From: Mogibacterium sp.
GTDB lineage: Bacteria > Bacillota > Clostridia > Peptostreptococcales > Anaerovoracaceae
Length of the DNA stretch: 64,000 nucleotides
Direction: 5' to 3'
Assembly (NCBI GenBank): GCA_017512365.1
Contig: JAFWGQ010000014.1
Location: 1 to 64,000, forward strand
The notes beneath the pieces are model-generated. The model searched no databases, was not told the DNA's origin, and was given only the letters and a program-made list of their open reading frames with translations. Positions within the stretch are counted from its first letter, which is position 1. Each line of letters starts with the position of its first letter. A program made the position numbers and the translations under genes. Shown in pieces: positions 196-50,822 of the stretch.

Positions 196-223
196 CGCAT
201 CCGCATCCTGCGGATGCGTTTTT
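196..223 (+). terminator. Rho-independent terminator after hppA
   Basis: A perfect 10-bp stem (CGCATCCGCA / TGCGGATGCG) with a 3-nt loop is followed by five T. It separates hppA from the next operon. Confidence 0.9.
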
Positions 224-260: not shown

Positions 261-275
261 TATACTAATTATGTA
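261..275 (+). promoter_or_regulatory. Probable -10 element with near-leaderless start
   Basis: TATACT at 261-266 lies only 8 nt before the ATG at 275. No convincing -35 hexamer sits 16-18 bp upstream and no Shine-Dalgarno sequence lies between. If used, transcription would start at about 272-274, giving a leaderless or almost leaderless mRNA for the MATE fusion gene. Confidence 0.4.
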
Positions 276-2068
276 TGCATGCTAATGAAGATAAAAGAGA
301 TGAAGGGAAACTTCTGAGGTCGGACAAGCTCCTGCTCCGCAAGTTCTCGCAGTACCTGGTGCCGACGATGATCACCTACGCGGCGCTGTCGCTTAACGAG
401 TTCGTTGACAGCATGCTGGTGTCCAATCTTCTCGGCAGCGAAGCGATGGCGATCGTCAACATCGGAGTACCCGTTGTGCTCCTCATGGCAGCTGCCTATG
501 CGCTGCTCGGACAAGGCGGAGCGACTTTATATGCCATAGCTGCAGGCCGCCGCGATCAAAGGACTGCCGGAGAGAGCCTGACAGCTTCAATGATGCTGTC
601 TCTTGTCATCGGATTTATCATAATGATCCCCGGCATAATGCTGCTCGATCCTGTTGCAGGCATTCTCTGCAAAGAAGAGGCCCTGCGCGGATCGTTCGAC
701 GTATATCTCAGAGTGCTGCTTTTATTGGCTCCTCTTGAGGTCATGATCCTTACGCTGGCGACTTTTCTGCCTGCGGCGGGTTATCCCGGACTGTCGACCG
801 CGGTCAATGTGGTCGCGAACATCGTGAACATCATGATGGATGTCGTATATATAAAGGTCTTCCATCTGGGAGTGGAGGGAGCCGCCTGGGCGACTCTGAC
901 AGGATACATAGCCGCCGGTCTGCTCGTGGCAGCGGGTGCGATGTCCGGCAGGGTGAAATTATATATCAGCAGGGACATAAAAAGTTCCATGGGCTGCGTA
1001 CGGGAGATCTTCGACCTGGGCAAGCCGGATGCGATGAACCAGATAGGACTGTCGATGCAGTTTGCCGTCTGCAACAGACTTGCGATGGCGGCCGGAGGCG
1101 CCAACGGGATCGTCGCACTGTCGTTCTGCATGCAGTCAAGTTCCGTCATGTCTGTGTTCGTCGGCGCTGTCATCGGAGCCTCCGTGCCTCTGATGGCCGT
1201 CCTGCACGGACAGTCGGACTACAGGGGCGAGGCGGGTATACTGAAGACTGCCATGATAAGCCAGTTCGTCGTTTCACTGGCGGGCACCGTGCTCATGTTC
1301 GTGTTCGCACCGCAGGCAGCCGCTCTTTACAATATAAAGGAGGCGGCCAGGCTTGCGATGTCTGTACATGCATTCAGGATATATGTCCTGATGTTCGTTC
1401 CTAGATACGCGCTGGTCGTTTATTACCGCTATCTGAAGGTGATAGGACTGACCGGATACTCGACGGTCCTGAGCGCTCTTGACAGCTTTGCCGCTGTGAT
1501 CCCCGTAGCATGGATCATGGTGAAAATGACCGGCATAGACGGTCTGTGGTGGTCGTTCCCGCTGACAGCTGTCCTGCTGATCATCCTTACTCTTGTCTGC
1601 AACGGCATGTACGCAGCCAGATCCGGAGGAAGGCTCAGAGGACCTCTGCTGATCGAGTATGAAAAAGAGGGCGATCCCGAGACCGTCATGGACGCGACGA
1701 TAACCAGGGATTCGACAGATATTTCTCTTATCAGCGAGAAGGTCCAGGAGATATGCGAGGAAAGAGGCCTTGACAAGATCGACGCGATGCGCGTCGCCAT
1801 GGCCGTGGAGGAGATCGCTGTATACACTGCCAACAGGCAGACGGAAAGTTCATACGCCGATGTGCTGGTGCGTATATACAGGGGGAATGTGGAGATCGAT
1901 TTCCGCAGCATGGGAGAGGTCTTCGACCCGAACGCGGACTACGAAGGCGACATAGCCGAGAATGTGCAGATACTAAGGAGCATAGTTTCGGATATCAGCA
2001 ATGAATACATACTGGGCATGAATTCGACCCGGATCACTATAAAAGGAAAGAACGAAGATGGAGAATAA
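275..2068 (+). CDS. MATE-family efflux transporter fused to a C-terminal GHKL/RsbW-like domain
   Basis: 597 aa. Residues about 20-450 form a 12-helix MATE (NorM/DinF-like) transporter, opening with a KFSQYLVPT..AALSLNEFVDS helix. MATE proteins export drugs or metabolites using Na+ or H+ gradients. After a short linker, residues about 474-597 look like an anti-sigma/histidine-kinase ATPase fold: the AMRVAMAVEEI helix and an MGEVFDPN turn resemble the N-box and G1 regions of RsbW. By eye the N-box Asn is replaced (EEIAVYTANR) and the G1 Asp is missing, so ATP binding is doubtful. Ordinary MATE proteins are about 450 aa and lack this tail. The stop overlaps the next gene by 11 nt, and a PP2C phosphatase follows, so the tail may be a regulatory partner domain. 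The transporter call is firm; the tail fold is inferred from motifs. The start is the only in-frame ATG before TM1. Confidence 0.8.
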   Translation: MHANEDKRDEGKLLRSDKLLLRKFSQYLVPTMITYAALSLNEFVDSMLVSNLLGSEAMAIVNIGVPVVLLMAAAYALLGQGGATLYAIAAGRRDQRTAGESLTASMMLSLVIGFIIMIPGIMLLDPVAGILCKEEALRGSFDVYLRVLLLLAPLEVMILTLATFLPAAGYPGLSTAVNVVANIVNIMMDVVYIKVFHLGVEGAAWATLTGYIAAGLLVAAGAMSGRVKLYISRDIKSSMGCVREIFDLGKPDAMNQIGLSMQFAVCNRLAMAAGGANGIVALSFCMQSSSVMSVFVGAVIGASVPLMAVLHGQSDYRGEAGILKTAMISQFVVSLAGTVLMFVFAPQAAALYNIKEAARLAMSVHAFRIYVLMFVPRYALVVYYRYLKVIGLTGYSTVLSALDSFAAVIPVAWIMVKMTGIDGLWWSFPLTAVLLIILTLVCNGMYAARSGGRLRGPLLIEYEKEGDPETVMDATITRDSTDISLISEKVQEICEERGLDKIDAMRVAMAVEEIAVYTANRQTESSYADVLVRIYRGNVEIDFRSMGEVFDPNADYEGDIAENVQILRSIVSDISNEYILGMNSTRITIKGKNEDGE

Positions 2069-3764
2069 AGGCAGCAGAAAGTCCATAGTGATATGCGAAT
2101 ATATCTCGACCGGCATCAATTACGTCGATGACGCTCTGGCGCGCGGCTATACGCCGGTGCTTGTAGAGGGACCGTATGTCGGCTCTCCCGAGGATGTGGA
2201 GCGACTGAGAGCGGTCCGCGAAAGGATCAACAGGCGCATGAAGGGCAAGGTCAGGATCATAAAGGAAGATCCGGACTATGACAATATCCTCAGGCAGGTA
2301 AAGGAAACGGATCCTGAGGTCGTACTGGCAGGCAGCAAATTCGGGGTGGCTCTGGCCGCCAGGCTCGCTGCGGATCTCGGACTCAAGGGCAATCCTGTCG
2401 AAAGGATACCGTACATGATCCGGAAGGACATGATGCAGAAGGCGCTCGCGGAACACGGCCTCAGGACTGTTCGGGGAAGGGCTGTCCGGTCTGACAGGGA
2501 AGCGCTGGAGTTCTTCAGACATCTCGGCAAAAACGAAGTCGTGGTCAAACCCGTACGCGGAGCCGGTTCCCAGGGCGTCCATCTGTGCAGGGGACAGGTC
2601 GAGATGCTGGAGATGGTGAGAAATCATCTGAACGAACTGCGGGAGCAGGGCGCCGAGGACCCCGCGGTCCTTGTTCAGGAATGCATCAAAGGCACAGAGT
2701 ATGTAGTGAATACGGTCTCGTGCAACGGCAAACACAGGGTCGTGTCGGTCGGAGCGTATGACAAATACAGACTGGACAACGGCTCGATAGCGTATAATTA
2801 CTTCAGATACATAACGAGGCTCGAGGTGGGGCACTCCAGGCTCCTCAGATACGCGTGCAGCGTGGCTGACGCGATCGGCATCAAATACGGTCCCGTGCAC
2901 GGAGAATACATGGTGGACGAAGAAGGACCGGTCCTTATAGAGGTCAACTGCAGGCCGATGGGAGGAGGGCTCATGCGAAAGTATTCGGAGCTCATCTCCG
3001 GCCAGCACGAGACCGACTCGGCTCTGGACAGCTATCTGGATCCGGAAAAATTCCATCTGGATTCGCTGAAGCCGTACAGCGTCAAGCGCTTCGGAGTGAG
3101 CAAGGACCTGGTGCTCACATCGGATACCGAAGTCATCTCGGCTCCCGTGCTGCAGATATGCAAAAGGCTCAAAAGCTATTACTCGGCGTCGTATGATCAG
3201 ATAGGAAGGACGACGATGCTTCAGCAGACTACGGACATGGAGACTGAGGCGGGCCTTGTATACCTTATACACGATGATGAGCAGCAGGTAAGAGAGGACT
3301 GCGAACTGCTGCATCTGCTTGAACTGAGATATCCGGACATACTGTTCCAGAAGTCGGATGAAGGCAAAACTGCGCCGAAAGTAACGAGAGATATCGGACA
3401 TGTGATGGAAGCCGCTGAATGCCATGGCGCGACAGTGGTCTTCAGCGATCGTCACGAAAAGATAAGCGGGGCGGCCGTCATCACACAGGAAGAGCTCAAA
3501 AACGCATACGACAGCTATGATCAGGGAATAATCGATCTGTCAGATCCCCGTTCATTCGCGGATCTTGAAAGTGTGATACAGCAGATTTTCGTGTTCATGG
3601 ACAAGGTGCGTGCAGGCGGGCGCGTGATCGTGCCGGAGAGCACATATTGTCACCTGCCTTACGGCATCGAGGGCATGGAGATACTTTTCAGGGTATCCGG
3701 AATGCTGTTAGAGCTGCCGGCAGCGGACGAGTCGGGACTTCTGATCGCGACAGTACAGGAGTAA
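2058..3764 (+). CDS. ATP-grasp domain protein with extra C-terminal domain
   Basis: 568 aa. The N-terminal 110 residues are Rossmann-like (ICEYISTGINYVDDALARG). Residues about 115-320 are an ATP-grasp core: VVVKPVRGAGSQGVHL (ATP lysine and glycine loop), VLVQECIKGTEYVVNTVS, and GPVHGEYMVDEEGPVLIEVNCRPMGGG (Mg-binding Glu/Asn). This fits carboxylate-amine ligases of the BacD/carbamoyl-phosphate synthase type. The last ~150 residues are not typical of the family; the segment AGGRVIVPESTYCHLP followed by GIEGMEILFRVSG recalls the end of a class I methyltransferase, but no clear SAM motif I is visible. The substrate is unknown. It starts inside the MATE gene and lies 12 nt before the phosphatase gene, so the three are probably co-translated. 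A peptide-like product exported by the MATE protein is a possible but unproved link. Confidence 0.75.
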   Translation: MENKGSRKSIVICEYISTGINYVDDALARGYTPVLVEGPYVGSPEDVERLRAVRERINRRMKGKVRIIKEDPDYDNILRQVKETDPEVVLAGSKFGVALAARLAADLGLKGNPVERIPYMIRKDMMQKALAEHGLRTVRGRAVRSDREALEFFRHLGKNEVVVKPVRGAGSQGVHLCRGQVEMLEMVRNHLNELREQGAEDPAVLVQECIKGTEYVVNTVSCNGKHRVVSVGAYDKYRLDNGSIAYNYFRYITRLEVGHSRLLRYACSVADAIGIKYGPVHGEYMVDEEGPVLIEVNCRPMGGGLMRKYSELISGQHETDSALDSYLDPEKFHLDSLKPYSVKRFGVSKDLVLTSDTEVISAPVLQICKRLKSYYSASYDQIGRTTMLQQTTDMETEAGLVYLIHDDEQQVREDCELLHLLELRYPDILFQKSDEGKTAPKVTRDIGHVMEAAECHGATVVFSDRHEKISGAAVITQEELKNAYDSYDQGIIDLSDPRSFADLESVIQQIFVFMDKVRAGGRVIVPESTYCHLPYGIEGMEILFRVSGMLLELPAADESGLLIATVQE

Positions 3765-3776
3765 AGGAAAACAGAA

Positions 3777-5528
3777 ATGGCAAAGAAGAAAAAAGGAGAT
3801 AATCAGCTCAATGAGGTGCGCCGTTCACTCGGCACGAAGACGTTCCTGATCACGCTTGCGCTTACGATGGGTATCGGAGCGACAGTGCTGATATTCGGGT
3901 TCCTGCTGTATGTCGTCGGCGTCATGCACGAATACATGGTCAACACCTGGAACCAGGCAAATGCTGAGGCCGCAGTCATCAGCCAGACCGATTACCGCAG
4001 ACTGAGCGAGACCGTGATGAGTATTTATGACAGCATCCCGGATGAAGAAAAAGGAGACGGAACATCTGAGGAATATATCGCGAAGTACGCAGGCATCAGG
4101 GAGTCTGATGAATTCCAGGGCGTTCTGAAAGCGATGAAGAGCCTGCAGAACAGGAACGGCCCGCTCAATGCCTTCATGGTGGCCATCGATCTGGAAAGCA
4201 ACAGGATGATATATATAGTGGACGCTGATCAGAAAGAAGACAGCACATGCCGCCCGGGCACATGGGATGAATATCCTCATGAGGAACTCGAGCAGCTCAT
4301 CTACGGAAGAAAGCGCTCATCCCTCGACAAACAGCAGGGGGTGAAGTCCGGAATCCAGGCTGTGTTCACGAACAGAGCCAAATACGGTCCGCGCTGCACC
4401 GCTGCATCGACCATGTGCGGGATCAGGAAGTATACGATACTGGTATGCGTAGACGAGAAGCTGAACCCTATGGTCGAGGCCAGCAAGCGATTCTTTGCTG
4501 AGTACGTCGCGCTTCTTGTGGTCGTGACTCTCATAGCCTCATATATCGGAATGAAGCGCATGAAGAAGGCGTTGATCGATCCGATCGACAAGCTTGCAGC
4601 TGCGGCTGTGGAATACAGCGATGATGAAAACAAGAAGGACGGCGAGAGACACTTCGCCGGTCTTGACATACACACAGGAGATGAGATCGAACGTCTGGCT
4701 GTGACGCTGCGCGACATGGAGACCGACGTCGCGGAGTACATGGACGACCTGACTGCCGCGACTGCCGAAAAGGAGCGTCTGGTCACCGAGCTGGCGCTTG
4801 CTGCCAAGATACAGATGAGCGTGCTGCCTGCTGTGTTCCCTCCGTTCCCTGACAGGAAGGAATTCGACCTTTTCGCTTCGATGGAGCCTGCAAAGGGCGT
4901 CGGAGGAGACTTCTACGACATGCTGATGCTCGACGATGATCATCTGGCGATAGAGATCGCCGACGTTTCGGGCAAGGGCGTGCCGGCCGCTCTGTTCATG
5001 ATGATATCAAAGATCATGCTCTCGGATACGATGAGAGACACACTGTCTCCGGCCGCCGTTCTCGAAGAGGTCAACAACAGGATATGCGAAAAGAACGAAG
5101 AAGAGATGTTCGTGACCGTATGGCTCGGCATACTTGAGATATCCACCGGAAGGCTTACAACAGCCAGCGCCGGACATGAGTATCCTGTGCTGGTGCATAC
5201 TGACGGCAATGCTGAAGTCATACGCGACAAGCACGGTTTCGTCGTAGGCGGTCTGGAAGGAATGAAGTATGAGGACTATGTGATACAGCTTGAAAAGGAC
5301 GACAGCATATTCGTATATACAGACGGCGTTACGGAGGCGACTTCGGCATCTGACGAGCTCTACGGCATGGACCGCATGGTCAGGGCGCTCGATAACGCTC
5401 CTGCGGGGGCGGCGCCGTGGGAACTGATGAAGTCCGTACGCAATGACATCAATGAATTCATCGGAGATGCAGAGCAGTTCGACGATCTGACGATGCTGTG
5501 CCTCAGGTACAACGGAAAAAGCGAATAA
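3777..5528 (+). CDS. Membrane sensor SpoIIE-type PP2C serine/threonine phosphatase (HAMP)
   Basis: 583 aa. Order: TM1 (about 20-45), extracytoplasmic sensor region (about 46-235, with a Cys pair in RCTAASTMCG), TM2 (about 238-258), HAMP and a short coiled coil (about 260-345), then a SpoIIE/RsbU-type PP2C domain (about 350-583). Metal-binding Asp motifs are all present: GGDFYD (near 375), DVSGKGVPAALF (near 394), TDGVTEA (near 515) and DDLTM (near 568), so it should be active. Family members dephosphorylate STAS anti-anti-sigma proteins in partner-switching systems. No STAS gene lies in the window, but the neighbouring GHKL-like domains are the other usual partner. It is 12 nt after the ATP-grasp gene. 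Phosphatase activity is a confident call; the target is unknown. Confidence 0.88.
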   Translation: MAKKKKGDNQLNEVRRSLGTKTFLITLALTMGIGATVLIFGFLLYVVGVMHEYMVNTWNQANAEAAVISQTDYRRLSETVMSIYDSIPDEEKGDGTSEEYIAKYAGIRESDEFQGVLKAMKSLQNRNGPLNAFMVAIDLESNRMIYIVDADQKEDSTCRPGTWDEYPHEELEQLIYGRKRSSLDKQQGVKSGIQAVFTNRAKYGPRCTAASTMCGIRKYTILVCVDEKLNPMVEASKRFFAEYVALLVVVTLIASYIGMKRMKKALIDPIDKLAAAAVEYSDDENKKDGERHFAGLDIHTGDEIERLAVTLRDMETDVAEYMDDLTAATAEKERLVTELALAAKIQMSVLPAVFPPFPDRKEFDLFASMEPAKGVGGDFYDMLMLDDDHLAIEIADVSGKGVPAALFMMISKIMLSDTMRDTLSPAAVLEEVNNRICEKNEEEMFVTVWLGILEISTGRLTTASAGHEYPVLVHTDGNAEVIRDKHGFVVGGLEGMKYEDYVIQLEKDDSIFVYTDGVTEATSASDELYGMDRMVRALDNAPAGAAPWELMKSVRNDINEFIGDAEQFDDLTMLCLRYNGKSE

Positions 5529-5550
5529 CGTTAAAGGATAAGAGCAGTAA

Positions 5551-7155
5551 ATGAACAGTAAAAGAATGGAAAGTACAAAGAACTTTCTGGCGATCATGGC
5601 GGTAGCGATAGTCATCGCTGCCGTCGCTCATGTCGTGTCGGTGATCTCGTATAACAGCAAGGTGCACAGGACACAGGGCGAGGATGACAGAAAGCAGGCC
5701 GTCATGGTCCTGAACGACAGAGAGGACAGCACCAGTTCATGGCTGAAGAGGGATTTTGACATGGACGGCAGGACTGTGGATCTTACAGGGCAGACCTTTG
5801 ACGGCGTACTTACGAACAAGTCATCCTCCGAGATCTCCGAATGGATGATGCGCATCAATATCAAGGGCGACTGTTACCTGAACAACGCCTGGTGCGGCGT
5901 CGTCGAGGTCCATCAGCACGTCGGCTCGGATAATGAGAAGGTGCAGACGCTCGATCTCAGAAAATACGAGCTTGAGGATGTGAAGCTGGATCACGTATAC
6001 GACGGAGACCTGCTCATCCCGCTTTCAAAAGGGGATTACATCATGTATTATCCTTCCGCCAAAGAGAGAGAGATGCCGGTGGCGGGCAAAACCGAGCTTA
6101 CGATAGGCATGATCCTGTACTATCTCGATGGGATAGATCTTTCGGATCACTACATCTCATACAAGCTGCATAAAAGCTTCTTTGAAGGGAAGGGCTTCTA
6201 CGCCGTTCTCGGTCTTGCACTGGTCTGGATCGCTGGATTCTTTGCATATGTCGTTGCTACGCTGTCGTACAGGAGAGCCTGGAAGGACATGGAACTCAGG
6301 AAGACCGGCGTTGCATACATGTCCGACATCTATGACATGATATACATGGCGGATCTTGTGAACGATGATATCACCACGATAAAGGGCGCTGATGCCGCAC
6401 GCGGGAGCGCACGCGGAAGCGTTGTTTCGCGCCTCGGTAAGCTGTTCATCGATGATGTCACGGACGAGTACAGGCAGGTCGCTGAGGAGTTCATGGACCC
6501 TGCTACGCTTGAGGAACGTTTTGACAGGGAGAGCATAGCCTGCCAGTACATGAGCAAAACAAAGGGGTGGTGCCTCGTCAGGCTTTTCGCCATAGACCGC
6601 AGGGAGGGCGAGCCTCTTCGCAGGTTCATCTTTACCATACAGAACATCAACGATGAAAAGACCGAGATGGATGAGATAGAAGACAGCATCACGGGCAGCG
6701 AAAACGAGACCGCCGGCATAGTCCCGGAGTCGGTCACGTATTCGATCAGGGATATCGTGGATGAAGCTCTCGCGGATGCTTCGGAAGAGGCGGAGCTCAG
6801 GGGAACTGAAGTCACTTCGGATATAGCTGCAGATCTTCCGGAGAAGCTCACAGGTGATCCGGGAAAGCTGCGCATGGTGATCGCATGCATGCTCCTCAGC
6901 GCTCTCAGGCACGCCGGAGGCAAAAGCATCAGGCTGTCGCTCTTCGCGAAGGAGACGAAGGACGGCAAAGAGCATCTGCTGGTCTCTGTAAGGGACAGCG
7001 GAGACGGGAAAAAGGATGATGAGAAAGACTTCGGCGGTCTTGGACTGAAGGCAGCCGAAGAGATGCTCAGGATAATGGACTCAGAGCTCCGCTCCATCTA
7101 TGAAGAGGGAGCCGGAAGCGAGCTTTATTTTGAGATAGAGCAGGAGAAAGCATGA
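5551..7155 (+). CDS. Membrane histidine-kinase-like protein lacking a phosphoacceptor His (probable pseudokinase)
   Basis: 534 aa. TM1 about 12-33, periplasm-facing region about 34-212, TM2 about 213-238, a cytoplasmic region, then an HATPase_c domain (about 395-534). The segment before the ATPase (YSIRDIVDEALADASEEAE.RGTEV, then GDPGKLRMVI) is typical of hybrid histidine kinases, but the upstream dimerisation helix with its SHELRTPL-type H-box is absent. In the N-box, LLSALRHAGG has Ser450 where Asn is expected. The G1 (VRDSGDG) and G2 (GGLGLKAAEEML) boxes remain. It may bind nucleotide but is unlikely to autophosphorylate on His. It lies 22 nt after the phosphatase gene and overlaps the HD-GYP gene by 4 nt (ATGA). 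Possible roles are a scaffold, or a kinase for another residue. Confidence 0.75.
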   Translation: MNSKRMESTKNFLAIMAVAIVIAAVAHVVSVISYNSKVHRTQGEDDRKQAVMVLNDREDSTSSWLKRDFDMDGRTVDLTGQTFDGVLTNKSSSEISEWMMRINIKGDCYLNNAWCGVVEVHQHVGSDNEKVQTLDLRKYELEDVKLDHVYDGDLLIPLSKGDYIMYYPSAKEREMPVAGKTELTIGMILYYLDGIDLSDHYISYKLHKSFFEGKGFYAVLGLALVWIAGFFAYVVATLSYRRAWKDMELRKTGVAYMSDIYDMIYMADLVNDDITTIKGADAARGSARGSVVSRLGKLFIDDVTDEYRQVAEEFMDPATLEERFDRESIACQYMSKTKGWCLVRLFAIDRREGEPLRRFIFTIQNINDEKTEMDEIEDSITGSENETAGIVPESVTYSIRDIVDEALADASEEAELRGTEVTSDIAADLPEKLTGDPGKLRMVIACMLLSALRHAGGKSIRLSLFAKETKDGKEHLLVSVRDSGDGKKDDEKDFGGLGLKAAEEMLRIMDSELRSIYEEGAGSELYFEIEQEKA

Positions 7156-8846
7156 TAACTGCCATCTACAGCCTGTGCCTGCTCGTATGCATCCTGATGC
7201 TCCTGAACATGGCGCAGAAGAACTACAACAACATAGACATCTATCACTGGACCATACTGATCCTGATACCCGTCATCATCATGGCGTACTGGCTCAAGAC
7301 GATGGTGACCAGCCCCGACGCTGCTTACGCACTGATGTGCTTCCAGTATCTGGACAGCACATTTCTGGTGGTCGCGGTAATATTCTATCTGCTGCACAAC
7401 GCGGGCGTGACAGCAAAGCCCTGGATGAAAACAGCTCTGTACGGGCTGGGGGTCGTCCATCTGCTCATCATATGCCTCTGCATCAACACAGACCTGTATT
7501 ACAGCAGTGTCGAGGTCATAGAGTCCTCCGCGGGCAATATCGTCCGCATCAGCAGCGGTCCGCTGATGGTGTTCCACTACATCTATCTCGCCGTGATCCT
7601 GCTCTGTTTTATCGCTGTCATGGCGGCGGGCGTCAGGCGCAGAGGAAGCTATGCGAACGCCAACATGCTGGTATATCTTATACTGCCGCTGATCAGCCTT
7701 GCTGCATATGCGGTCGAAGGCATGACCGGCCAGGACTATTCCATGCTTCCGGTGGCGTACGCCGTCATGGATGTGGTCATCGCTTTGTTTTATGACGGCG
7801 CGCATACTCACGACATCTCGTTTCTTATCGCGGATCATCACAAATCCGAGGCGTCAAGAGCCTATGCCGCATTCGCGCTGAACGGAAGGTTCCTGAGCTG
7901 CAATGAAAAGAGCTATGAATTCCTGCCGTTCCTGAAGGAGATCAAAGTCAACGACATGCCTCCTGAAGGAGACAGGATCGCGGACATCATCTATGATCTT
8001 TTCGATTCGTTCGAACGCGGTGAGGTGAATACGGTGAGATACCCCCTCGGAGACATGACCTGCGAATGCGGGATATCCTATTTCTCACTGCGCGAAGGAG
8101 GCAGCAGGCACGGATATCTTCTCGATATACGTGACGCGACAAAAGAGCAGGAAGCCTACGATCTTATGCAGAGCTACAACGAGAGGCTCAATGAAGAGGT
8201 CGAGGAGAAAACCGAGAATATCCGTGACATCCAGCGCAAGATCGTCCTGGGGATGGCGGGCATGATAGAAAACCGTGACAATAACACGGGAGGCCATGTA
8301 AAAAGGACAAGCGACATAATAAAGATCATCGTGGATGAGATAATGGCGCGCGGCACCATGGACATCAGCGAGCAGATGGCGGAAGACATAGTCCGGGCTG
8401 CCCCTACGCACGACCTGGGCAAGGTCACCATAGACAACAGCATCCTCAACAAGCCGGGCAGGTTCACCGATGAGGAATACGAGATAATGAAGACCCACTC
8501 GACGAAAAGCGGCGAGATGGTGATGATACTGCTCGACGGCGTCGAGGAGGAGCGATTCGTAAAGGTGGCGTACAATGTTGCGCGCTATCATCATGAAAGA
8601 TGGGACGGACGGGGCTATCCTGAGGGGCTTGTCGGCACGATGATACCTCTGGAGGCAAGGATAATGGCCATAGCGGATGTGTATGACGCGCTTGTAAGCA
8701 AGCGCGTTTACAAGGATGCGATGAGCTTCGAAAAGAGCGCGTCGATCATGTGCGAATGCATGGGCACTCAGTTCGATCCCAACATGAAGGCGGTTTTCCT
8801 GGGATGCAGGGAAAAGCTCGAAGAATACTATTCAGCCAACGAATAA
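7152..8846 (+). CDS. Membrane HD-GYP domain protein, putative cyclic-di-GMP phosphodiesterase
   Basis: 564 aa. Residues 1-220 hold about seven membrane helices in the pattern of 7TM sensor modules. A PAS-like stretch follows (about 225-330; ALNGRFLSCNEKSYEFLPF), then a coiled coil (LNEEVEEKTENIRDIQ) and an HD-GYP domain (about 360-564). Catalytic motifs are intact: GMIENRDNNTGGHVKRT, THDLGKV (His-Asp near 419) and HHERWDGRGYPEGL with the GYP signature near 487. HD-GYP enzymes hydrolyse c-di-GMP. The start overlaps the previous stop (ATGA), so this is the fifth gene of the 275-8846 operon. No terminator follows, so read-through into the HypD pair 67 nt away is possible. Confidence 0.85.
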   Translation: MITAIYSLCLLVCILMLLNMAQKNYNNIDIYHWTILILIPVIIMAYWLKTMVTSPDAAYALMCFQYLDSTFLVVAVIFYLLHNAGVTAKPWMKTALYGLGVVHLLIICLCINTDLYYSSVEVIESSAGNIVRISSGPLMVFHYIYLAVILLCFIAVMAAGVRRRGSYANANMLVYLILPLISLAAYAVEGMTGQDYSMLPVAYAVMDVVIALFYDGAHTHDISFLIADHHKSEASRAYAAFALNGRFLSCNEKSYEFLPFLKEIKVNDMPPEGDRIADIIYDLFDSFERGEVNTVRYPLGDMTCECGISYFSLREGGSRHGYLLDIRDATKEQEAYDLMQSYNERLNEEVEEKTENIRDIQRKIVLGMAGMIENRDNNTGGHVKRTSDIIKIIVDEIMARGTMDISEQMAEDIVRAAPTHDLGKVTIDNSILNKPGRFTDEEYEIMKTHSTKSGEMVMILLDGVEEERFVKVAYNVARYHHERWDGRGYPEGLVGTMIPLEARIMAIADVYDALVSKRVYKDAMSFEKSASIMCECMGTQFDPNMKAVFLGCREKLEEYYSANE

Positions 8847-8912: not shown

Positions 8913-9824
8913 ATGCACGCAGTAACCAACATACAGAAATATTCGATACATGACGGAGACGGGATACGCACCACGGTATTCTTCAAGGGATGCCACCTGA
9001 GGTGCTGGTGGTGCCATAACCCGGAAACGCAGCGCTTTGAGCCGGAACTGCAGGTCGACTCGGACAGATGCACCGGATGCGGCCGCTGCGCCGCAGCCTG
9101 TCCCACGGGGGCTGTAAGCTTCGGCGACGACCGCAAGGCTCTCATAGACCGTGAGAAGTGTCTTGTGTGCGGCCGCTGCGCTGATGTGTGCCCCGGCAAT
9201 ATAAGGACTCTGGTAGGCAGGGACTACAGCGTAAAGGAACTCGTAAAGATATGCCTGCAGGATCAGATGTTCTACGAGGAATCTCACGGGGGCGTCACTC
9301 TGTCCGGCGGCGAGGTCATGGCCATGGATCCGGATTATATCCTTGAGCTCGTCAGGGCGCTCCGCCGCGAGGGCATAGACATCACGATTGATACCTGCGG
9401 CCAGGCTCCGTACGCCAATTACGAAGCTCTGCTGCCTTATGTACATACATGGCTCTACGACATCAAGGTCATGGACCGTGATAAACACAGAAAGTATATC
9501 GGGACGGACAATAACATTATACTGGACAACCTGAAAGGCATCGCAAAGGCGGGTGCCAGGATATACGTAAGGATACCAACGGTAAGGGAAGTCAACGGCG
9601 ATCCTGAGTCCATGGCTGCGATAATGGACTTCCTCAAAGAGAACGATATCAGGCCGGCGCAGGTGAATCTGCTGCCTTATCACAGCACAGGCTCCCACAA
9701 GTACGGCAAGCTCGGAAGGGAGTACCGGGCGTCGGAGCTGACGGCGCCTTCGGACGAAGAGATGCAGGGCTTTGTAAAGCAGTGGAACGATGCCGGCTTC
9801 ACAAACGTGATGATAGGCGGATAA
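8913..9824 (+). CDS. Glycyl-radical enzyme activase for HypD (radical SAM)
   Basis: 303 aa. The radical SAM cluster motif is GCHLRCWWC (Cys27, Cys31, Cys34), preceded by the SIHDGDGIRTTVFFKG signature of PflA-type activases. Two inserted ferredoxin clusters follow (Cys53/56/59/63 and Cys83/86/89/93), as in activases of GREs other than pyruvate formate-lyase. GGVTLSGGEV and DIKVMDRDKHRKYIG are further family marks. It generates the glycyl radical on its partner using SAM and an electron. The partner gene begins 47 nt downstream, which assigns the substrate. SD-like AGGAAGG precedes the ATG. Confidence 0.92.
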   Translation: MHAVTNIQKYSIHDGDGIRTTVFFKGCHLRCWWCHNPETQRFEPELQVDSDRCTGCGRCAAACPTGAVSFGDDRKALIDREKCLVCGRCADVCPGNIRTLVGRDYSVKELVKICLQDQMFYEESHGGVTLSGGEVMAMDPDYILELVRALRREGIDITIDTCGQAPYANYEALLPYVHTWLYDIKVMDRDKHRKYIGTDNNIILDNLKGIAKAGARIYVRIPTVREVNGDPESMAAIMDFLKENDIRPAQVNLLPYHSTGSHKYGKLGREYRASELTAPSDEEMQGFVKQWNDAGFTNVMIGG

Positions 9825-9870
9825 GAGGCGTAAAGCTGTCTCTCATTATAAGCATAAACGGAGGAAAAAC

Positions 9871-12243
9871 ATGGAAGAAAGAGGAATGAACGAAAGGGTC
9901 AGGGCGCTCAGAAAAGTGAGCATGGAGACCCAGCCGCACATCGATCTCGAAAGGGCGAAGATCGAGACGGAGGTATACAAAAAATACGAAGGCAAGGTTT
10001 CCCTTCCGGTGCTGAGAGCCATGGTCCTCAGGGAGTATTTCAGCAAGAAGACGCTCTACCTCGGCGAGGGCGAACTCATCGTAGGCGAAAAGGGAAGGGA
10101 TCCTCAGTCATCTCCTACTTTTCCTGAACTGACATGCCACACGCTCGAGGACATGTATATCATGAACGACAGAAAGGTCGTCAACTACACCGTCACGGAG
10201 CAGGATCTGAAGGACCAGAAGGAGATCATCATTCCTTTCTGGCAGGGCAAGTCCATGAGAGACAAGCTGCTCGCGAGCATGACCCACGAATGGAGGAAGT
10301 GCTACAGAGCGGGCATGTTCACGGAGTTCATGGAGCAGAGAGGACCGGGACACACCTGCGGCGGAAAGAACGTATTCAACAAGGGGTACGAGGAATACAA
10401 AACAGAGATACAGGCTGCGATCGACGCGCTCGACTTCATGAATGATCCGGAGGCTCTCGAGAAGAAGGACGAGCTCGAGGCCATGCTGATCGACTGTGAT
10501 GCGGTGATGACTCTCGGCAGGAGATATCAGAAGCTTCTGAAGGATGAGGCCGGCAAATGCACGGATGCCGTTCGCAGGGCGGAGCTTGAGCAGATGGCGG
10601 CGAATCTGGATGTGGTGCCGGCTCACAAGCCTGAGACATTCTGGCAGGCGATCCAGCTCTACTGGTTCACCCACCTTGCTGTAACGACAGAACTCAACCC
10701 ATGGGACGCATTCAGCCCGGGCAGGCTAGACCAGCACCTCTTCCCGTACTACGAAAAGGATACGGAGGACGGCATACTCGATGATGAAAAGGCGCTCGAG
10801 CTTCTCGAATGCCTGTGGATCAAGTTCAACAACCAGCCGGCTCCTGTAAAGGTCGGAGTGACTCTCAGAGAGAGCGGCACATATACCGACTTCGCCAATA
10901 TCAACACCGGCGGCATAAGGGAGGACGGCACCAACGGAGTCAACGCCGTAAGCTACCTGATCCTCGACTGCATGGACGAGATGAGACTGGTGCAGCCTAA
11001 CTCGAACGTACAGATCTCAAAGAAGACTCCCAACAGGTTCCTCAGGAGGGCATGCGAGATATCCAGAAAAGGCTGGGGACAGCCGGCTTTCTATAACACG
11101 GATGAGATCGTGCAGGAGCTCCTTAACGCGGGCAAGACTCTCGACGACGCGAGGCAGGGAGGTTCGTCCGGATGCGTCGAGACGGGCAGCTGGGGCAATG
11201 AAGCCTATATCCTCACAGGATACCTCAATATCCCTAAGATACTGCAGCTCACTTTATACAACGGATTCGACAATCAGTCGGGCAAGCAGCTCGGACCTAA
11301 GACCGGATACGCATGGGATTTCGACACTTACGAGCAGCTCTTCGACGCATTCGCAAAGCAGCTCCATCACATGGTGGACGTAAAGGTGCGCGGCAACAAC
11401 GTCATCGAGAAACTCTACGCCAACTACATGCCTGCTCCGTGCCTCTCGATCGTCACAAACGACTGCATCAGCAAGGGCAGGGACTACAACAACGGCGGTT
11501 CGAGATACAACACGAGGTACATCCAGGGCGTCGGCATCGGCACGGTCACAGACTGCCTCGCGGCGATAAAATACAACGTATATGACAATAAGAACTTCAC
11601 CATGAAGGAGCTCATCGAAGCCATGGATGACAACTTCCTCGGCCACGAGGACATACTCAACATGGTGCAGAACAGGACTCCTAAATACGGCAACGATGAC
11701 GACTATGCCGACGACATCATGCAGGCTGTTTTCGAGCTGTACAGAGACGAGGTCACAGGCAGACCGACCATGTGCGGCGGGCAGTACCATGTAGACATGC
11801 TGCCTACGACATGCCACATATACTTCGGCGAAGTCATCGGAGCCACCGCGAACGGCAGACTCGCAAACAAGCCTGTGTCCGAGGGCATCTCGCCTGAAAA
11901 GTTCGCAGACACGAACGGACCTACCGCGGTCATCAAGAGCTGCGCCAAGATGGATCACTGCAGCACGGGCGGAACACTTCTGAACCAGAAATTCACGCCG
12001 GCAGCCATCGCGGGAGAGAAGGGACTCGACAATCTGGCAAGCCTGATAAGAGCGTATTTCGCGATGGACGGACATCATATCCAGTTCAATGTATTTGACA
12101 AGGAGACGCTGCTCGAGGCTCAGAAGCATCCTGATGACTATAAGGACCTCATAGTCCGCGTAGCCGGATACTCAGACTACTTCAGGAACCTCGACAGGGA
12201 GCTGCAGGACGAGATCATCAACAGGACAGCGCAGTCATTCTGA
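9871..12243 (+). CDS. hypD: trans-4-hydroxy-L-proline dehydratase (glycyl radical enzyme)
   Basis: 790 aa, the usual length. It dehydrates trans-4-hydroxy-L-proline to 1-pyrroline-5-carboxylate (P5C), which ProC reduces to proline. Recognition is from recalled similarity to the Clostridioides difficile enzyme along the whole length: HTCGGKNVF, PAHKPETFWQAIQLYWFTHLA, FANINTGG, the active-site loop GGSSGCVETG (thiyl Cys435, base Glu437), and the glycyl radical motif RVAGYSD (Gly766) near the C-terminus. The spacing of Cys and Glu matches HypD rather than PFL, which has adjacent cysteines. An SD (GGAGG) sits 9 nt before the ATG. The activase gene is directly upstream, and proC lies 11 kb away on the other strand. 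This hypD is unrelated to the hydrogenase maturation gene of the same name. Confidence 0.92.
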   Translation: MEERGMNERVRALRKVSMETQPHIDLERAKIETEVYKKYEGKVSLPVLRAMVLREYFSKKTLYLGEGELIVGEKGRDPQSSPTFPELTCHTLEDMYIMNDRKVVNYTVTEQDLKDQKEIIIPFWQGKSMRDKLLASMTHEWRKCYRAGMFTEFMEQRGPGHTCGGKNVFNKGYEEYKTEIQAAIDALDFMNDPEALEKKDELEAMLIDCDAVMTLGRRYQKLLKDEAGKCTDAVRRAELEQMAANLDVVPAHKPETFWQAIQLYWFTHLAVTTELNPWDAFSPGRLDQHLFPYYEKDTEDGILDDEKALELLECLWIKFNNQPAPVKVGVTLRESGTYTDFANINTGGIREDGTNGVNAVSYLILDCMDEMRLVQPNSNVQISKKTPNRFLRRACEISRKGWGQPAFYNTDEIVQELLNAGKTLDDARQGGSSGCVETGSWGNEAYILTGYLNIPKILQLTLYNGFDNQSGKQLGPKTGYAWDFDTYEQLFDAFAKQLHHMVDVKVRGNNVIEKLYANYMPAPCLSIVTNDCISKGRDYNNGGSRYNTRYIQGVGIGTVTDCLAAIKYNVYDNKNFTMKELIEAMDDNFLGHEDILNMVQNRTPKYGNDDDYADDIMQAVFELYRDEVTGRPTMCGGQYHVDMLPTTCHIYFGEVIGATANGRLANKPVSEGISPEKFADTNGPTAVIKSCAKMDHCSTGGTLLNQKFTPAAIAGEKGLDNLASLIRAYFAMDGHHIQFNVFDKETLLEAQKHPDDYKDLIVRVAGYSDYFRNLDRELQDEIINRTAQSF

Positions 12244-48300: not shown

Positions 48301-49479
48301 ATGGAAAAGAATTTATACATCGTGAGGTGCGGCGAGGTCGCACTCAAGGGAATGAATAAGCCGTACTTCGAGCGCGTGCTCCTCGAGAGGGTGTGCAGGG
48401 CGCTTGAAGTCTATGAAGACGCCGAGGCAAAGTGGATCGACGGTCTGATGTTCGTCAGGGTGCCTGAAAAGTACAACGAGGATGAAGTCATCGCGAGCTG
48501 CGTAAGAGTTTTCGGCGTGGCGTCGGTGAGCCCTGCGGTCGAAGCGCCTAAGGACATCAACGAGATCGGACGCATCGCCGGAGAGTACATGCTGAAGGTC
48601 ATCGAAGAAGAGGACATAAAGACCTTCAAGGTCAAGGGCAAGAGGGCAGACAAGAGCTTTGCCGTCGAATCTCCGGAGATAGCCAGGCAGGTGGGAGGCA
48701 TGGTACTCAAGGCCTGCAAAGTGCTCTCCGTAGATGTGCACAGGCCCGACTGCGTGCTGACCGTCGATGTGAGGCGCGAGGCGGCGTATATCTTCAGAGA
48801 CAAGATCAAGGGCTTCGGAGGGCTCCCTCTGGGGACCAACGGCAAGGGTATGATACTCATGTCCGGCGGCATAGACAGTCCGGTCGCAGCCTTCATGATG
48901 GCAAAGAGGGGCATGAGCATAGAAGCCGTGCACTTCCATTCATATCCGTACACGAGCCAGAGAGCCCAGCGCAAGGTCGAGGATCTTGTAAGGGTGCTCG
49001 CCGGCTACATGGGTACGGTGAAAATGCACGTAATAAACCTTCTTCCTATACAGGAAGAGATCGTAAAGAACTGCCCTGAGGATGAGACGACCCTGCTGGT
49101 GAGGCGCTTCATGATGAGGATAGCCGAGCAGATCGCGATAAAGAACGGCGCCATGATGCTGATCACCGGCGAGGATCTCGGCCAGGTCGCGAGCCAGACG
49201 GCAGAGGCACTGGTTGTCACGGACAGCGTCGTATCGATGCCTGTCATGAGGCCGCTGATCGCCATGGACAAGGTGGATATCATGGACAAGGCCCGCGAGA
49301 TAGGGACCTACGACATCTCGATCCAGCCATACGAGGACTGCTGCACGGTGTTCCTGCCGAAGCATCCTGTCACAAAGCCTAAGCGCGAGAGGATCGAAAA
49401 GTCGGAGTCGGCTCTCGATGTCGATGCTCTTGTAGAAGCGGCAGTCGCTTCTGAGGAGACCATAGAGATCAGACCGTAA
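48301..49479 (+). CDS. thiI: tRNA 4-thiouridine synthase ThiI
   Basis: 392 aa. N-terminal ferredoxin-like and THUMP domains (about 1-170), then the PP-loop ATPase (MILMSGGIDSPVAAFMMAKRGMS) and HFHSYPYTSQRAQRKVEDL. There is no C-terminal rhodanese domain, as is usual in Firmicutes. It adenylates U8 of tRNA and inserts sulfur delivered by the upstream desulfurase. The frame opens at 48085 inside the desulfurase gene; the ATG at 48301 gives the family N-terminus (NLYIVRCGEVALKGMNKPYFE) but has no clear SD. Confidence 0.94.
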   Translation: MEKNLYIVRCGEVALKGMNKPYFERVLLERVCRALEVYEDAEAKWIDGLMFVRVPEKYNEDEVIASCVRVFGVASVSPAVEAPKDINEIGRIAGEYMLKVIEEEDIKTFKVKGKRADKSFAVESPEIARQVGGMVLKACKVLSVDVHRPDCVLTVDVRREAAYIFRDKIKGFGGLPLGTNGKGMILMSGGIDSPVAAFMMAKRGMSIEAVHFHSYPYTSQRAQRKVEDLVRVLAGYMGTVKMHVINLLPIQEEIVKNCPEDETTLLVRRFMMRIAEQIAIKNGAMMLITGEDLGQVASQTAEALVVTDSVVSMPVMRPLIAMDKVDIMDKAREIGTYDISIQPYEDCCTVFLPKHPVTKPKRERIEKSESALDVDALVEAAVASEETIEIRP

Positions 49480-50822
49480 TGGATAAAAGGGACTTGGTTG
49501 AGAAAAGAGAAATAAAAGAACCTTCAGTTAATAAAGTATTGGCCGTACAGATAGTCACGATGCTGATAAGCGTCATCGCGATGTTTATTGACAGCGTCAT
49601 AATCAGCCTTTTCCTCAAAGGTGACGCGCTGGCTTCGTACGGCTTTACTAATCCCGTAATTCTTCTGATCACGGCTTTCGGCGGAATGATAGGAAACGGA
49701 GTGCAAGTGCTGGCGGGGGAGAGCTCCGGCAAGGGAGAGACTGAGACGCTGAACCGGATACTGTCTACCGCACTTGCGGGCGGCGTGACGGGATCCGCAT
49801 TGCTGATGCTTGTGATGCTGCTGTTTCCGGAATCGGCAGCGGCATTCCTGGGAGCCAGGAGTGCTGCCGTTACAGCGATGACGGCGGACTATCTGAAGGG
49901 GCTGTGTTTCGCTTTTCCTGCTATCGTGATCATGCTAAGCGTACCGGTCTTCATGCAGCTCGACGGCGGAAGGACACAACTGCTCAGAGGAGCTCTGCTC
50001 CTGATAGTGCTGGACGTGGCATTTGATCTCATAAATGTTACCGTGCTGCACGGCGGCATGTTCGGCATGGCGATGGCGACTACCCTGAGCTACTGGATCA
50101 CGCTGGCTTACAATTATCTCTGTTTCTTCCGAATGAGCAGATACAGAGTATCTTTCAGCGCGGTATCAGGCGCAATAATGAAGGCCATATTCCGTTTCGG
50201 CATGCTCTATCTTACCTATAAGATGTGTCAGGTGATCCTCAGCTATGCGATCAACCGCATGCTGGCGTCTTTTGGCGGGGAAATGTATGTAGCTGCGAAT
50301 TCCATCATATCCTCATTCAATCTGGTGACCGGGGCAGTTCCGTCAGGATTCGGGAGCACGACCACTATGATATGCAGCTTCTACTACGGAATGGGCAGCA
50401 AAGAAAAGTTCAGGGCGTTCATATCGCATATCACGAAGCTTTCGGTCAGACTGGACTCAGCGATAGCAGTCATCAGCATCGCGGCGGCGCCTTTGCTCGT
50501 GCTGCTGTTCAGACCGGACACAGCAATTGTCAGTGATACGGCAGTATTCGGACTCAGGCTGTTTTCGGCCAGCATAATATTCAACACACTCAACTACATC
50601 ATAAAGAACAGCTGTCAGAGCGTCAGGAACAACCGGGCGTCCTATGCGATATGCATTATGAACGACCTCGCACTTCCGCTCGCGGCAGCGATTATCATAG
50701 TTCAGCTGCTTCCTGTGGGATGGATATGGGCCGCATATACGATCGGCCAGTTTCTCACATGGCTCGTAGTATGGACCCGGGCAGGAGGATTCAGTAAGGG
50801 AGGACCAGAGATTTGGAAATAA
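49479..50822 (+). CDS. MATE-family transporter (no C-terminal extension)
   Basis: 447 aa, about 12 helices, MATE pattern (TMLISVIAMFIDSVIISLFLKGDALASYGFTNPVILLITAFGGMIGNGVQVLAGESSGKG). It starts inside the thiI stop (TAATG) and overlaps the next gene by 10 nt. The second gene is a lipid-type ligase/acyltransferase, so a lipid or lipopeptide substrate is possible. Unlike the MATE protein at 275 it has no GHKL-like tail. Confidence 0.87.
   Translation: MDKRDLVEKREIKEPSVNKVLAVQIVTMLISVIAMFIDSVIISLFLKGDALASYGFTNPVILLITAFGGMIGNGVQVLAGESSGKGETETLNRILSTALAGGVTGSALLMLVMLLFPESAAAFLGARSAAVTAMTADYLKGLCFAFPAIVIMLSVPVFMQLDGGRTQLLRGALLLIVLDVAFDLINVTVLHGGMFGMAMATTLSYWITLAYNYLCFFRMSRYRVSFSAVSGAIMKAIFRFGMLYLTYKMCQVILSYAINRMLASFGGEMYVAANSIISSFNLVTGAVPSGFGSTTTMICSFYYGMGSKEKFRAFISHITKLSVRLDSAIAVISIAAAPLLVLLFRPDTAIVSDTAVFGLRLFSASIIFNTLNYIIKNSCQSVRNNRASYAICIMNDLALPLAAAIIIVQLLPVGWIWAAYTIGQFLTWLVVWTRAGGFSKGGPEIWK

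What the first reader, a model, noticed from the sequence alone, without database searches (positions are those of the whole stretch)
275..8846. Five-gene operon joining a transporter with an RsbW-like tail, ATP-grasp, PP2C phosphatase, pseudokinase and HD-GYP
The genes overlap or lie within 22 nt of each other. The set combines partner-switching parts (SpoIIE-type phosphatase, GHKL-like domain) with a MATE exporter, a ligase-like ATP-grasp enzyme and a c-di-GMP hydrolase. No STAS protein or sigma factor is present, so the usual output is missing and the exporter itself may be the regulated target. I know of no named system with this content. A model: the phosphatase and HD-GYP read signals and control export of a product made by the ATP-grasp enzyme.
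Basis: partly seen in the sequence, partly recalled or inferred. Interest (0 to 1): 0.75.

Follow-up and report, generated by a model that had tools for sequence, protein, structure and literature searches.

The report
Exporter with signalling-derived tail, peptide ligase
A gut bacterium carries a small gene set that appears to make and export a tiny peptide-like molecule, using an exporter fused to a worn-out piece of a bacterial signalling switch; related sets occur in other gut microbes, including archaea.

Summary
The five genes are as described, but only two or three look like a system. (1) In 31 of 79 ATP-grasp relatives a MATE with the same tail lies within 400 nt on the same strand, in Clostridia, Selenomonadaceae, Spirochaetota and Methanobrevibacter. 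(2) In a survey of 391 genomes of the class, 16 of 30 MATE-tail fusions lie near SpoIIE-PP2C, STAS or RsbW-like genes and 11 of 30 near an NRPS, against 0 and 2 of 30 tail-less MATEs. The ATP-grasp, closest in the PDB to an L-amino acid ligase, appears to take the NRPS place. (3) The tail is RsbW-related but in the ATP-grasp-linked proteins lacks ATP-site residues: N-box Asn in 1 of 33, G1 Asp in 0 of 33, against 21 and 23 of 26 survey fusions. HD-GYP genes are not enriched; the kinase-like gene was seen only in the window and one near relative. Best reading: a small-peptide synthesis/export module whose exporter carries a partner-switching-derived, ATP-dead docking domain. Chemistry and regulation are inferred. 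Leahy 2010 (PMC2812497) noted NRPS + phosphatase + MatE clusters in a methanogen; I found no report of the tail or the ATP-grasp version.

The parts
275..2068 (+). MATE-family exporter with C-terminal RsbW-related tail
   Evidence: Pfam MatE 7.8e-23; fusion relatives; quick tree of the transmembrane part places it with NRPS- and ATP-grasp-linked exporters, SH-aLRT 98
1640..2065 (+). tail: RsbW/HATPase_c_2-related domain with Tyr for N-box Asn and Ser for G1 Asp; G2 Gly not seen by eye
   Evidence: hhalign with RsbW-like proteins 95.4%, E 1.7e-8; motif table; no Pfam hit
2058..3764 (+). ATP-grasp ligase near L-amino acid ligases, PRK07206 and dapdiamide synthase, with an extra C-terminal region (about residues 420-568)
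   Evidence: Pfam ATP-grasp_4 9.9e-15; PRK07206 7.7e-71 and DdaF 4e-32, both below cut-off; PDB L-amino acid ligase 30vh 8.6e-51 over residues 71-417; tree of 78 rows
3777..5528 (+). membrane protein with HAMP-like region (below Pfam cut-off) and SpoIIE-type PP2C phosphatase; motifs GGDFYD, DVSGKG, YTDG and DD present (by eye)
   Evidence: SpoIIE 3.1e-50; PP2C relatives near ATP-grasp in L048-L052, L063
5551..7155 (+). membrane histidine-kinase-like protein, probable pseudokinase (no phospho-acceptor His or N-box Asn seen by eye; DxGxG kept); lineage-specific
   Evidence: HATPase_c 23.4 bits against cut-off 26.4; clusters only with L048/L041 among the loci
7152..8846 (+). 7TM-HD-GYP protein, HD and GYP motifs present by eye; not a conserved part of the system
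   Evidence: HD_5 2.9e-27, HisKA_7TM 1.1e-9; HD-GYP genes not enriched near ATP-grasp relatives
202..218 (+). terminator-like hairpin after the upstream partial gene; the unit probably starts after it

Best explanation
A two-gene core makes and exports a small peptide-like product: the ATP-grasp enzyme joins two amino-acid-like substrates through an acyl-phosphate (inferred from family), and the MATE protein exports the product (inferred). The exporter belongs to a group of MATE proteins that carry an RsbW-type partner-switching domain and otherwise lie by NRPS genes. With the ATP-grasp partner the domain has lost its ATP-site residues and most likely persists as a docking domain, binding a STAS protein or the linker of the neighbouring PP2C sensor (as the kinase-fold protein RsbT docks on RsbU, recalled), so that a membrane-sensed signal gates export or couples it to synthesis. 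Shown: gene content, recurrence, tail ancestry, loss of the residues, enrichment of partner-switching and NRPS genes near the fusions. Inferred: the reaction, the substrate, the docking partner and the direction of control.
For: MATE-tail within 400 nt, same strand, of 31 of 79 ATP-grasp loci, 19 of 50 with at least 1.8 kb on both sides. Survey not anchored on ATP-grasp: PP2C 14 v 0, STAS 10 v 0, RsbW-like domains outside the MATE 9 v 0, NRPS 11 v 2 of 30 fusions v 30 tail-less MATEs; any partner-switching part 16 v 0, Fisher p 2e-6; 0 of 4 further tail-less MATEs from fusion-bearing genomes. Compact examples: NRPS, MATE-tail, STAS, PP2C+HATPase_c_2 (L167); STAS, MATE-tail, ATP-grasp, STAS, PP2C, RsbW-like (L065). 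ATP-grasp- and NRPS-linked exporters form one group of 41 rows in a quick transmembrane-only tree, SH-aLRT 98. In 10 Methanobrevibacter genomes, chosen because they hold ATP-grasp relatives, 8 had fusions; of 18 places 6 lie by an ATP-grasp, 8 by NRPS genes, 1 by a weak NRPS-like fragment, 3 by neither. Closest solved relative of the enzyme is an L-amino acid ligase. N-box Asn in 1 of 33 and G1 Asp in 0 of 33 ATP-grasp-linked tails, against 21 and 23 of 26 survey fusions with a countable tail.
Against: 31 of 50 well-flanked ATP-grasp loci have no adjacent MATE-tail, among them all 9 Bacteroidota loci with such flanks, so the pair is not obligate. PP2C lies within 8 kb of only 13 of 79, STAS of 6 of 79; in L049 and L063 PP2C is on the opposite strand and in L052 it is 6 kb away. 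In same-genus G157 the two orthologues are about 14 kb apart with other neighbours. No STAS gene is linked in the window. Tail decay is not confined to the ATP-grasp branch: 4 of the 11 NRPS-linked survey fusions (L173-L176) have shorter tails that match no tail profile, and in Methanobrevibacter N-box Asn is no rarer with ATP-grasp (1 of 5) than with NRPS (2 of 6), by eye. In the exporter tree ATP-grasp-linked rows need 2 changes, the archaeal ones falling by L173-L176. A dead domain may have no role. Structure prediction was off, and the tail profile matches no solved structure below E 0.54. SDF transporters with a similar N-terminal domain are not significantly linked to PP2C class-wide (1 of 11 v 0 of 19).
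Confidence: 0.48

Rival explanations
1. Flux sensing: the MATE is the sensor and the tail holds or releases a STAS/PP2C partner that controls transcription elsewhere, as transport-coupled sensing does for BceAB-type systems (recalled); export is the input, not the output.
For: Fusions lie by PP2C/STAS/RsbW-like genes in 16 of 30 survey loci; the own genome has a distant STAS + STAS-APH-HATPase_c_2 pair on C72 that could serve as a shared hub.
Against: For the MATE group that holds the window protein, NRPS or ATP-grasp genes are the usual neighbours, which fits an exporter better than a pure sensor.
Confidence: 0.2
2. Detoxification or resistance: the ATP-grasp enzyme tags a toxic compound by ligation and the MATE expels it; the phosphatase tunes this.
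For: MATE proteins are commonly drug exporters (recalled); Bacteroidota loci hold the ligase with no MATE-tail nearby.
Against: Related exporters lie beside NRPS genes (L156, L164-L168, L172-L176), pointing to product export; a Treponema locus adds an AMP-binding + carrier + thioesterase protein (L058).
Confidence: 0.15
3. Chance operon: PP2C, kinase-like protein and HD-GYP have their own targets, and only MATE + ATP-grasp belong together.
For: HD-GYP is not enriched and the kinase-like gene is lineage-specific; PP2C is within 8 kb of only 13 of 79 ATP-grasp loci; in two near relatives it is on the opposite strand.
Against: PP2C is within 8 kb in six of six near relatives whose contigs reach that far (L048-L052, L063; L050 and L051 are one MAG by title), and near 14 of 30 MATE-tail fusions found without the ATP-grasp anchor.
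Confidence: 0.17

Closest known systems
NRPS / serine phosphatase / anti-sigma-factor antagonist / MatE clusters of Methanobrevibacter ruminantium M1 (mru0066-0071, mru0351-0352; PMC2812497, passages read)
   Same: MatE exporter and serine phosphatase beside a peptide-making enzyme; Methanobrevibacter fusions found here mostly lie by NRPS or ATP-grasp genes.
   Different: The paper assigns the phosphatases and antagonist to sensing and NRPS expression; the passages mention no MatE tail, and 'atp-grasp' has 0 hits in its main text. The window has no NRPS and no STAS, and its tail lacks ATP-site residues. I did not test the M1 proteins.
RsbU/RsbV/RsbW (SpoIIE/SpoIIAA/SpoIIAB) partner switching
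   Same: SpoIIE-type PP2C and an RsbW-related domain.
   Different: Domain fused to a transporter, ATP-site residues lost, no linked STAS in the window.
L-amino acid ligases (PDB 30vh, BL00235), dapdiamide synthase DdaF, BacD
   Same: ATP-grasp core; profile of 7 relatives matches 30vh at 8.6e-51, window protein matches DdaF at 4e-32.
   Different: Extra C-terminal region of about 150 residues; below the cut-offs of the NCBIfam models; activity unknown.
MATE efflux family
   Same: Pfam MatE 7.8e-23, two stretches.
   Different: C-terminal signalling-derived domain; TIGR00797 score 102.6 below its cut-off 147.4.

Membership tests
Partner-switching module (RsbU/V/W) | SpoIIE-type PP2C phosphatase | tested here: met
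   SpoIIE 3.1e-50, profile 1-191/192; motifs by eye
Partner-switching module (RsbU/V/W) | RsbW kinase with ATP-binding N and G boxes | tested here: not met
   window tail has Tyr for N-box Asn and Ser for G1 Asp
Partner-switching module (RsbU/V/W) | STAS protein encoded with it | tested here: not met
   none in the operon; genome STAS matches are on C72 and C17
Partner-switching module (RsbU/V/W) | RsbW-type domain by descent | tested here: met
   hhalign 95.4%, E 1.7e-8
L-amino acid ligase (ATP-grasp) | ATP-grasp domain with closest solved kin among L-amino acid ligases | tested here: met
L-amino acid ligase (ATP-grasp) | ATP-dependent amide-bond formation | not testable with these tools
   needs enzyme assay
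MATE exporter | two MatE repeats | tested here: met
   MatE, 2 stretches
MATE exporter | NCBIfam TIGR00797 cut-off | tested here: not met
   102.6 against 147.4 bits
M. ruminantium-type NRPS/PP2C/MatE cluster | NRPS gene in the cluster | tested here: not met
   none of the five genes matches an NRPS model; ATP-grasp in its place
Sensor histidine kinase (gene 4) | phospho-acceptor His and complete HATPase_c | tested here: not met
   HATPase_c 23.4 bits below cut-off 26.4; His and N-box Asn not seen by eye
c-di-GMP phosphodiesterase HD-GYP (gene 5) | HD and GYP motifs | tested here: met
   HD_5 2.9e-27; motifs read by eye; activity not testable

The most novel reading that the evidence does not exclude
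Partner switching here ends on a transporter instead of a sigma factor: MATE exporters fused to RsbW-type domains are post-translational outputs of PP2C/STAS circuits that time the release of small peptides, and a version with an ATP-dead domain paired to an ATP-grasp ligase has spread by gene transfer through herbivore-gut Bacteria and Archaea.
Probability: 0.3. Interest if true: 0.82.

Novelty: new variant of a known kind. Interest (0 to 1): 0.6.

Why it matters
If right, it extends partner switching from control of transcription to direct control of export, and shows a signalling kinase domain turned into an ATP-free docking piece on a transporter. It also points to an unrecognised class of small peptides shared by gut Clostridia, Spirochaetota, Selenomonadaceae and methanogens. 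A two-gene core and a well-typed ligase family make the chemistry directly testable; two records titled as strains, Treponema sp. JC4 and Prevotella sp. tf2-5, hold the ligase.

Tried and rejected
Rejected: c-di-GMP as a conserved part. GGDEF and HD-GYP genes are no denser near the 79 ATP-grasp loci (4.2 and 1.7 per Mb) than near the 30 tail-less MATEs (6.0 and 4.0 per Mb); near the 30 fusions 4.1 and 6.1. Against this, in the own genome GGDEF genes lie in the fetched stretches around three PP2C genes (L026, L151, L152) and by one SDF fusion (L155), and L052 has a HAMP-GGDEF gene after its MATE-tail.

Rejected: a general rule 'any transporter with an RsbW-like domain lies by PP2C'. The own genome has SDF symporters with an N-terminal domain of this kind after PP2C on C49 (two copies) and C51, but class-wide 1 of 11 such fusions has PP2C/STAS/RsbW nearby against 0 of 19 controls; one of the 11 (L226) showed no match to the N-terminal profile itself.

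Led nowhere: the tail profile against PDB sequences gave 3 weak hits, E 0.54 and above, none of the RsbW kind; the plasmid search gave 40 records, all under 60% identity and none covering 80% of the query.

Limits. One search scored only the three best candidates per genome and its match list was cut; the 30 fusions are all listed matches outside the own genome that reach query position 544 or more, from 24 genomes, some close species, so p-values are optimistic. The 30 controls come from the next 43 ranked tail-less matches: 13 were left out, some for long frames that might hide a tail (G331, G236, G492), stops or contig starts, some for no set reason; two controls share a genome. The 19 SDF controls were picked likewise. 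Motif counts cover 26 of the 30 survey fusions (L173-L176 have no tail match) and 33 ATP-grasp-linked tails (30 of the 31 adjacent ones, L118 being split, plus window, L027 and L047); near-identical pairs are included. In one search, 79 loci of 189 relatives were returned; 29 of the 79 have under 1.8 kb on one side. The transmembrane tree left out L048, L092, L118 and L122. Four of the 18 Methanobrevibacter places are loci already counted (L089, L107, L114, L118).

Odds: after rechecking, the best explanation was lowered from 0.50 to 0.48 and the chance-operon rival raised from 0.15 to 0.17, because tails without ATP-site residues also occur beside NRPS genes (L173-L176).
Full report
What is there. 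Downstream, 66 nt on, are the activase and trans-4-hydroxyproline dehydratase genes (both over their NCBIfam cut-offs), which look unrelated. The window is the start of a 285,633-base contig.

Which genes belong together. Searching 60 relatives with the ATP-grasp protein gave matches below 1e-90 in 6 of 36 same-genus genomes, own included (one of them, G223, with a stop inside), and in 0 of 24 other genomes of the order: an accessory, patchy gene. The named-genome scan returned 79 loci of 189 relatives. Of the 79 record titles, 34 name a ruminant or horse gut site outright, 28 carry RUG or RUI isolate codes (rumen collections, recalled) and 17 give no source. They span Clostridia, Negativicutes, Spirochaetota, Bacteroidota, Synergistota and Methanobrevibacter (groups set by me from the titles). 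In the tree of 78 ATP-grasp rows, Spirochaetota need 3 and Clostridia 6 changes even when only starred branches count, while archaeal, Bacteroidota and Negativicutes rows each form one side of a branch. Misbinning cannot explain all of this, since records titled as strains, Treponema sp. JC4 (325 kb contig) and Prevotella sp. tf2-5 (444 kb contig), carry it. Transfer between phyla in herbivore guts is the natural reading; collection bias towards rumen MAGs was not tested.

MATE-tail lies within 400 nt on the same strand in 31 of 79 loci, 19 of 50 with at least 1.8 kb on both sides; PP2C within 8 kb in 13, NRPS-like genes in 7, STAS in 6 and SDF fusions in 2 of 79. The 11 Bacteroidota loci show none of the scanned partners apart from one SDF transporter (L070); two of them (L070, L079) are cut short on one side. 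In six near relatives whose contigs reach far enough (L048-L052, L063; L050 and L051 are one MAG by title) PP2C is within 8 kb in 6 of 6, on the opposite strand in L049 and L063 and 6 kb off in L052. The kinase-like protein clusters only with L048/L041, the same contig. HD-GYP is not enriched.

A survey without the ATP-grasp anchor. 391 genomes of the class were searched with 24 aligned MATE-tail proteins. Thirty fusions outside the own genome were compared with 30 tail-less MATEs, about 16 kb each: PP2C 14 v 0, STAS 10 v 0, RsbW-like domains outside the MATE 9 v 0, NRPS 11 v 2, any partner-switching part 16 v 0 (Fisher p 2e-6), any of these or ATP-grasp 26 v 2 (2e-10). Four further tail-less MATEs from fusion-bearing genomes had 0 of 4. 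L167 reads NRPS, MATE-tail, STAS, PP2C fused to HATPase_c_2; L065 has STAS, MATE-tail, ATP-grasp, STAS, PP2C and an RsbW-like gene. L157 and L177 have a STAS-APH-HATPase_c_2 protein nearby, and the own genome has one beside a STAS gene on C72. A quick-method tree of the transmembrane part alone, so not driven by the tail, puts the tail-less MATEs in one group (SH-aLRT 99) and the NRPS- and ATP-grasp-linked exporters in another (41 rows, 98). Within it the ATP-grasp-linked rows are not one group: the six archaeal ones fall by L173-L176 (94), so pairing with ATP-grasp may have arisen more than once. In 10 Methanobrevibacter genomes chosen for holding the ATP-grasp, 8 had fusions, 18 places: 6 next to ATP-grasp, 8 near NRPS genes (one of them, L278, about 3.6 kb off and with a broken MATE), 1 next to a weak NRPS-like fragment (L267, 2e-11), 3 next to neither. 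Hence the view that the ligase and the NRPS are alternative synthetic partners of one exporter lineage.

The tail. Pfam recognises HATPase_c_2 over its cut-off in 7 of 7 fusions tested that are not ATP-grasp-linked (six, L024) and in 0 of 5 ATP-grasp-linked ones tested (window; L065:8253; L114, L089, L093). Profile comparison still finds the kinship from ATP-grasp-linked tails alone (95.4%, E 1.7e-8). Motifs: in 26 survey fusions N-box Asn 21, G1 Asp 23; in 6 other fusions 5 and 5; in 33 ATP-grasp-linked tails 1 and 0, with the preceding acidic residue kept in 33 and Asn replaced by Tyr, Phe or His in 32. Of the 11 NRPS-linked survey fusions, 7 are in that count (6 Asn, 7 Asp); the other 4, L173-L176, have shorter tails without a profile match, with no N-box Asn or G1 Asp seen by eye. 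In Methanobrevibacter, by eye, G1 Asp is in 5 of 6 NRPS-linked and 0 of 5 ATP-grasp-linked intact tails, but N-box Asn is in 2 of 6 and 1 of 5, so only G1 shows the contrast there; L279 (NRPS-linked, no tail match) was left out and does not show the Asp. So loss of the ATP site is general with ATP-grasp and occasional with NRPS. A conserved domain without its ATP site is most likely a docking piece, though decay is not excluded.

The enzyme. Its best solved relatives are L-amino acid ligases (8.6e-51 over residues 71-417), its best named models PRK07206 and dapdiamide synthase, both below cut-off. Residues beyond about 420 are an extra conserved region of unknown fold; structure prediction was off. 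Three Treponema loci have an NRPS-like protein next door (L056, L058, L061), in L058 AMP-binding, carrier and thioesterase, and two Lachnospiraceae loci a methyltransferase (Pfam on L059 only), both usual for small-peptide pathways (recalled).

Known work. Leahy et al. 2010 (PMC2812497; passages read) describe in M. ruminantium an NRPS gene with two serine phosphatases, an anti-sigma factor antagonist and a MatE protein, and propose sensing, regulation of NRPS expression and export. A rumen BGC survey (PMC8241843; passages read) reports many NRPS clusters in rumen Firmicutes and Methanobrevibacter, some alike across these phyla; its main text has no 'ATP-grasp' hit. Full-text searches for the fusion or the ATP-grasp version showed nothing on point: none held all terms; listings only (25 of 858 shown; 12 of 37; 15 of 58). 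The library lacks most subscription papers. So the neighbourhood kind is known in part; the fused tail, its lost ATP site and the ligase version appear undescribed within those searches.

Verdict. Real, conserved in its core and more than an ordinary operon; mechanism open. It works like a peptide biosynthesis-export unit with partner-switching ancestry, but the window's set is not a member of the RsbU/V/W family, since two defining features (ATP-binding RsbW, linked STAS) were tested and not met.

Noticed in passing
L026:6315-10992 (own genome C49): SpoIIE PP2C followed by two paralogous sodium:dicarboxylate symporters (SDF) with an N-terminal degenerate RsbW-like domain; another PP2C + SDF fusion on C51 (L147) and one with a HAMP-GGDEF protein on C24 (L155). 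Class-wide the PP2C link is not significant.
   Followed up: partly
L024:6246-8951 (own genome C32): MATE + HATPase_c_2 + HD-CE triple fusion, followed by a separate HD-CE protein.
   Followed up: no
L153:5120-7071 (own genome C72); also L157, L177: STAS-APH-HATPase_c_2 protein, in L153 beside a stand-alone STAS gene: a phosphotransferase-like domain between partner-switching domains.
   Followed up: no
L086, L087, L097, L100, L104: Lachnospiraceae/Eubacterium loci with a STAS protein (STAS-APH by Pfam in L086), a second ATP-grasp (Pfam on L097 only), the ATP-grasp relative and PP2C, but no MATE-tail found; condensation-like and ABC-exporter-like proteins were read by eye.
   Followed up: partly
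L027:9597-18357 (G157): The same-genus MATE orthologue is the last of a run that includes two TIR-like proteins and a channel-like protein (read by eye).
   Followed up: no
window 49455-53452: Tail-less MATE next to an AMP-binding + carrier + acyltransferase protein of 885 aa.
   Followed up: no
window 8913-12243: trans-4-hydroxy-L-proline dehydratase and its activase, over NCBIfam cut-offs.
   Followed up: no
L088:8695-12098 and L106:9983-13688: Tandem copies of the ATP-grasp gene.
   Followed up: no
L173-L176: NRPS-linked MATE proteins whose tails are shorter and match no tail profile, a possible intermediate of tail decay.
   Followed up: partly
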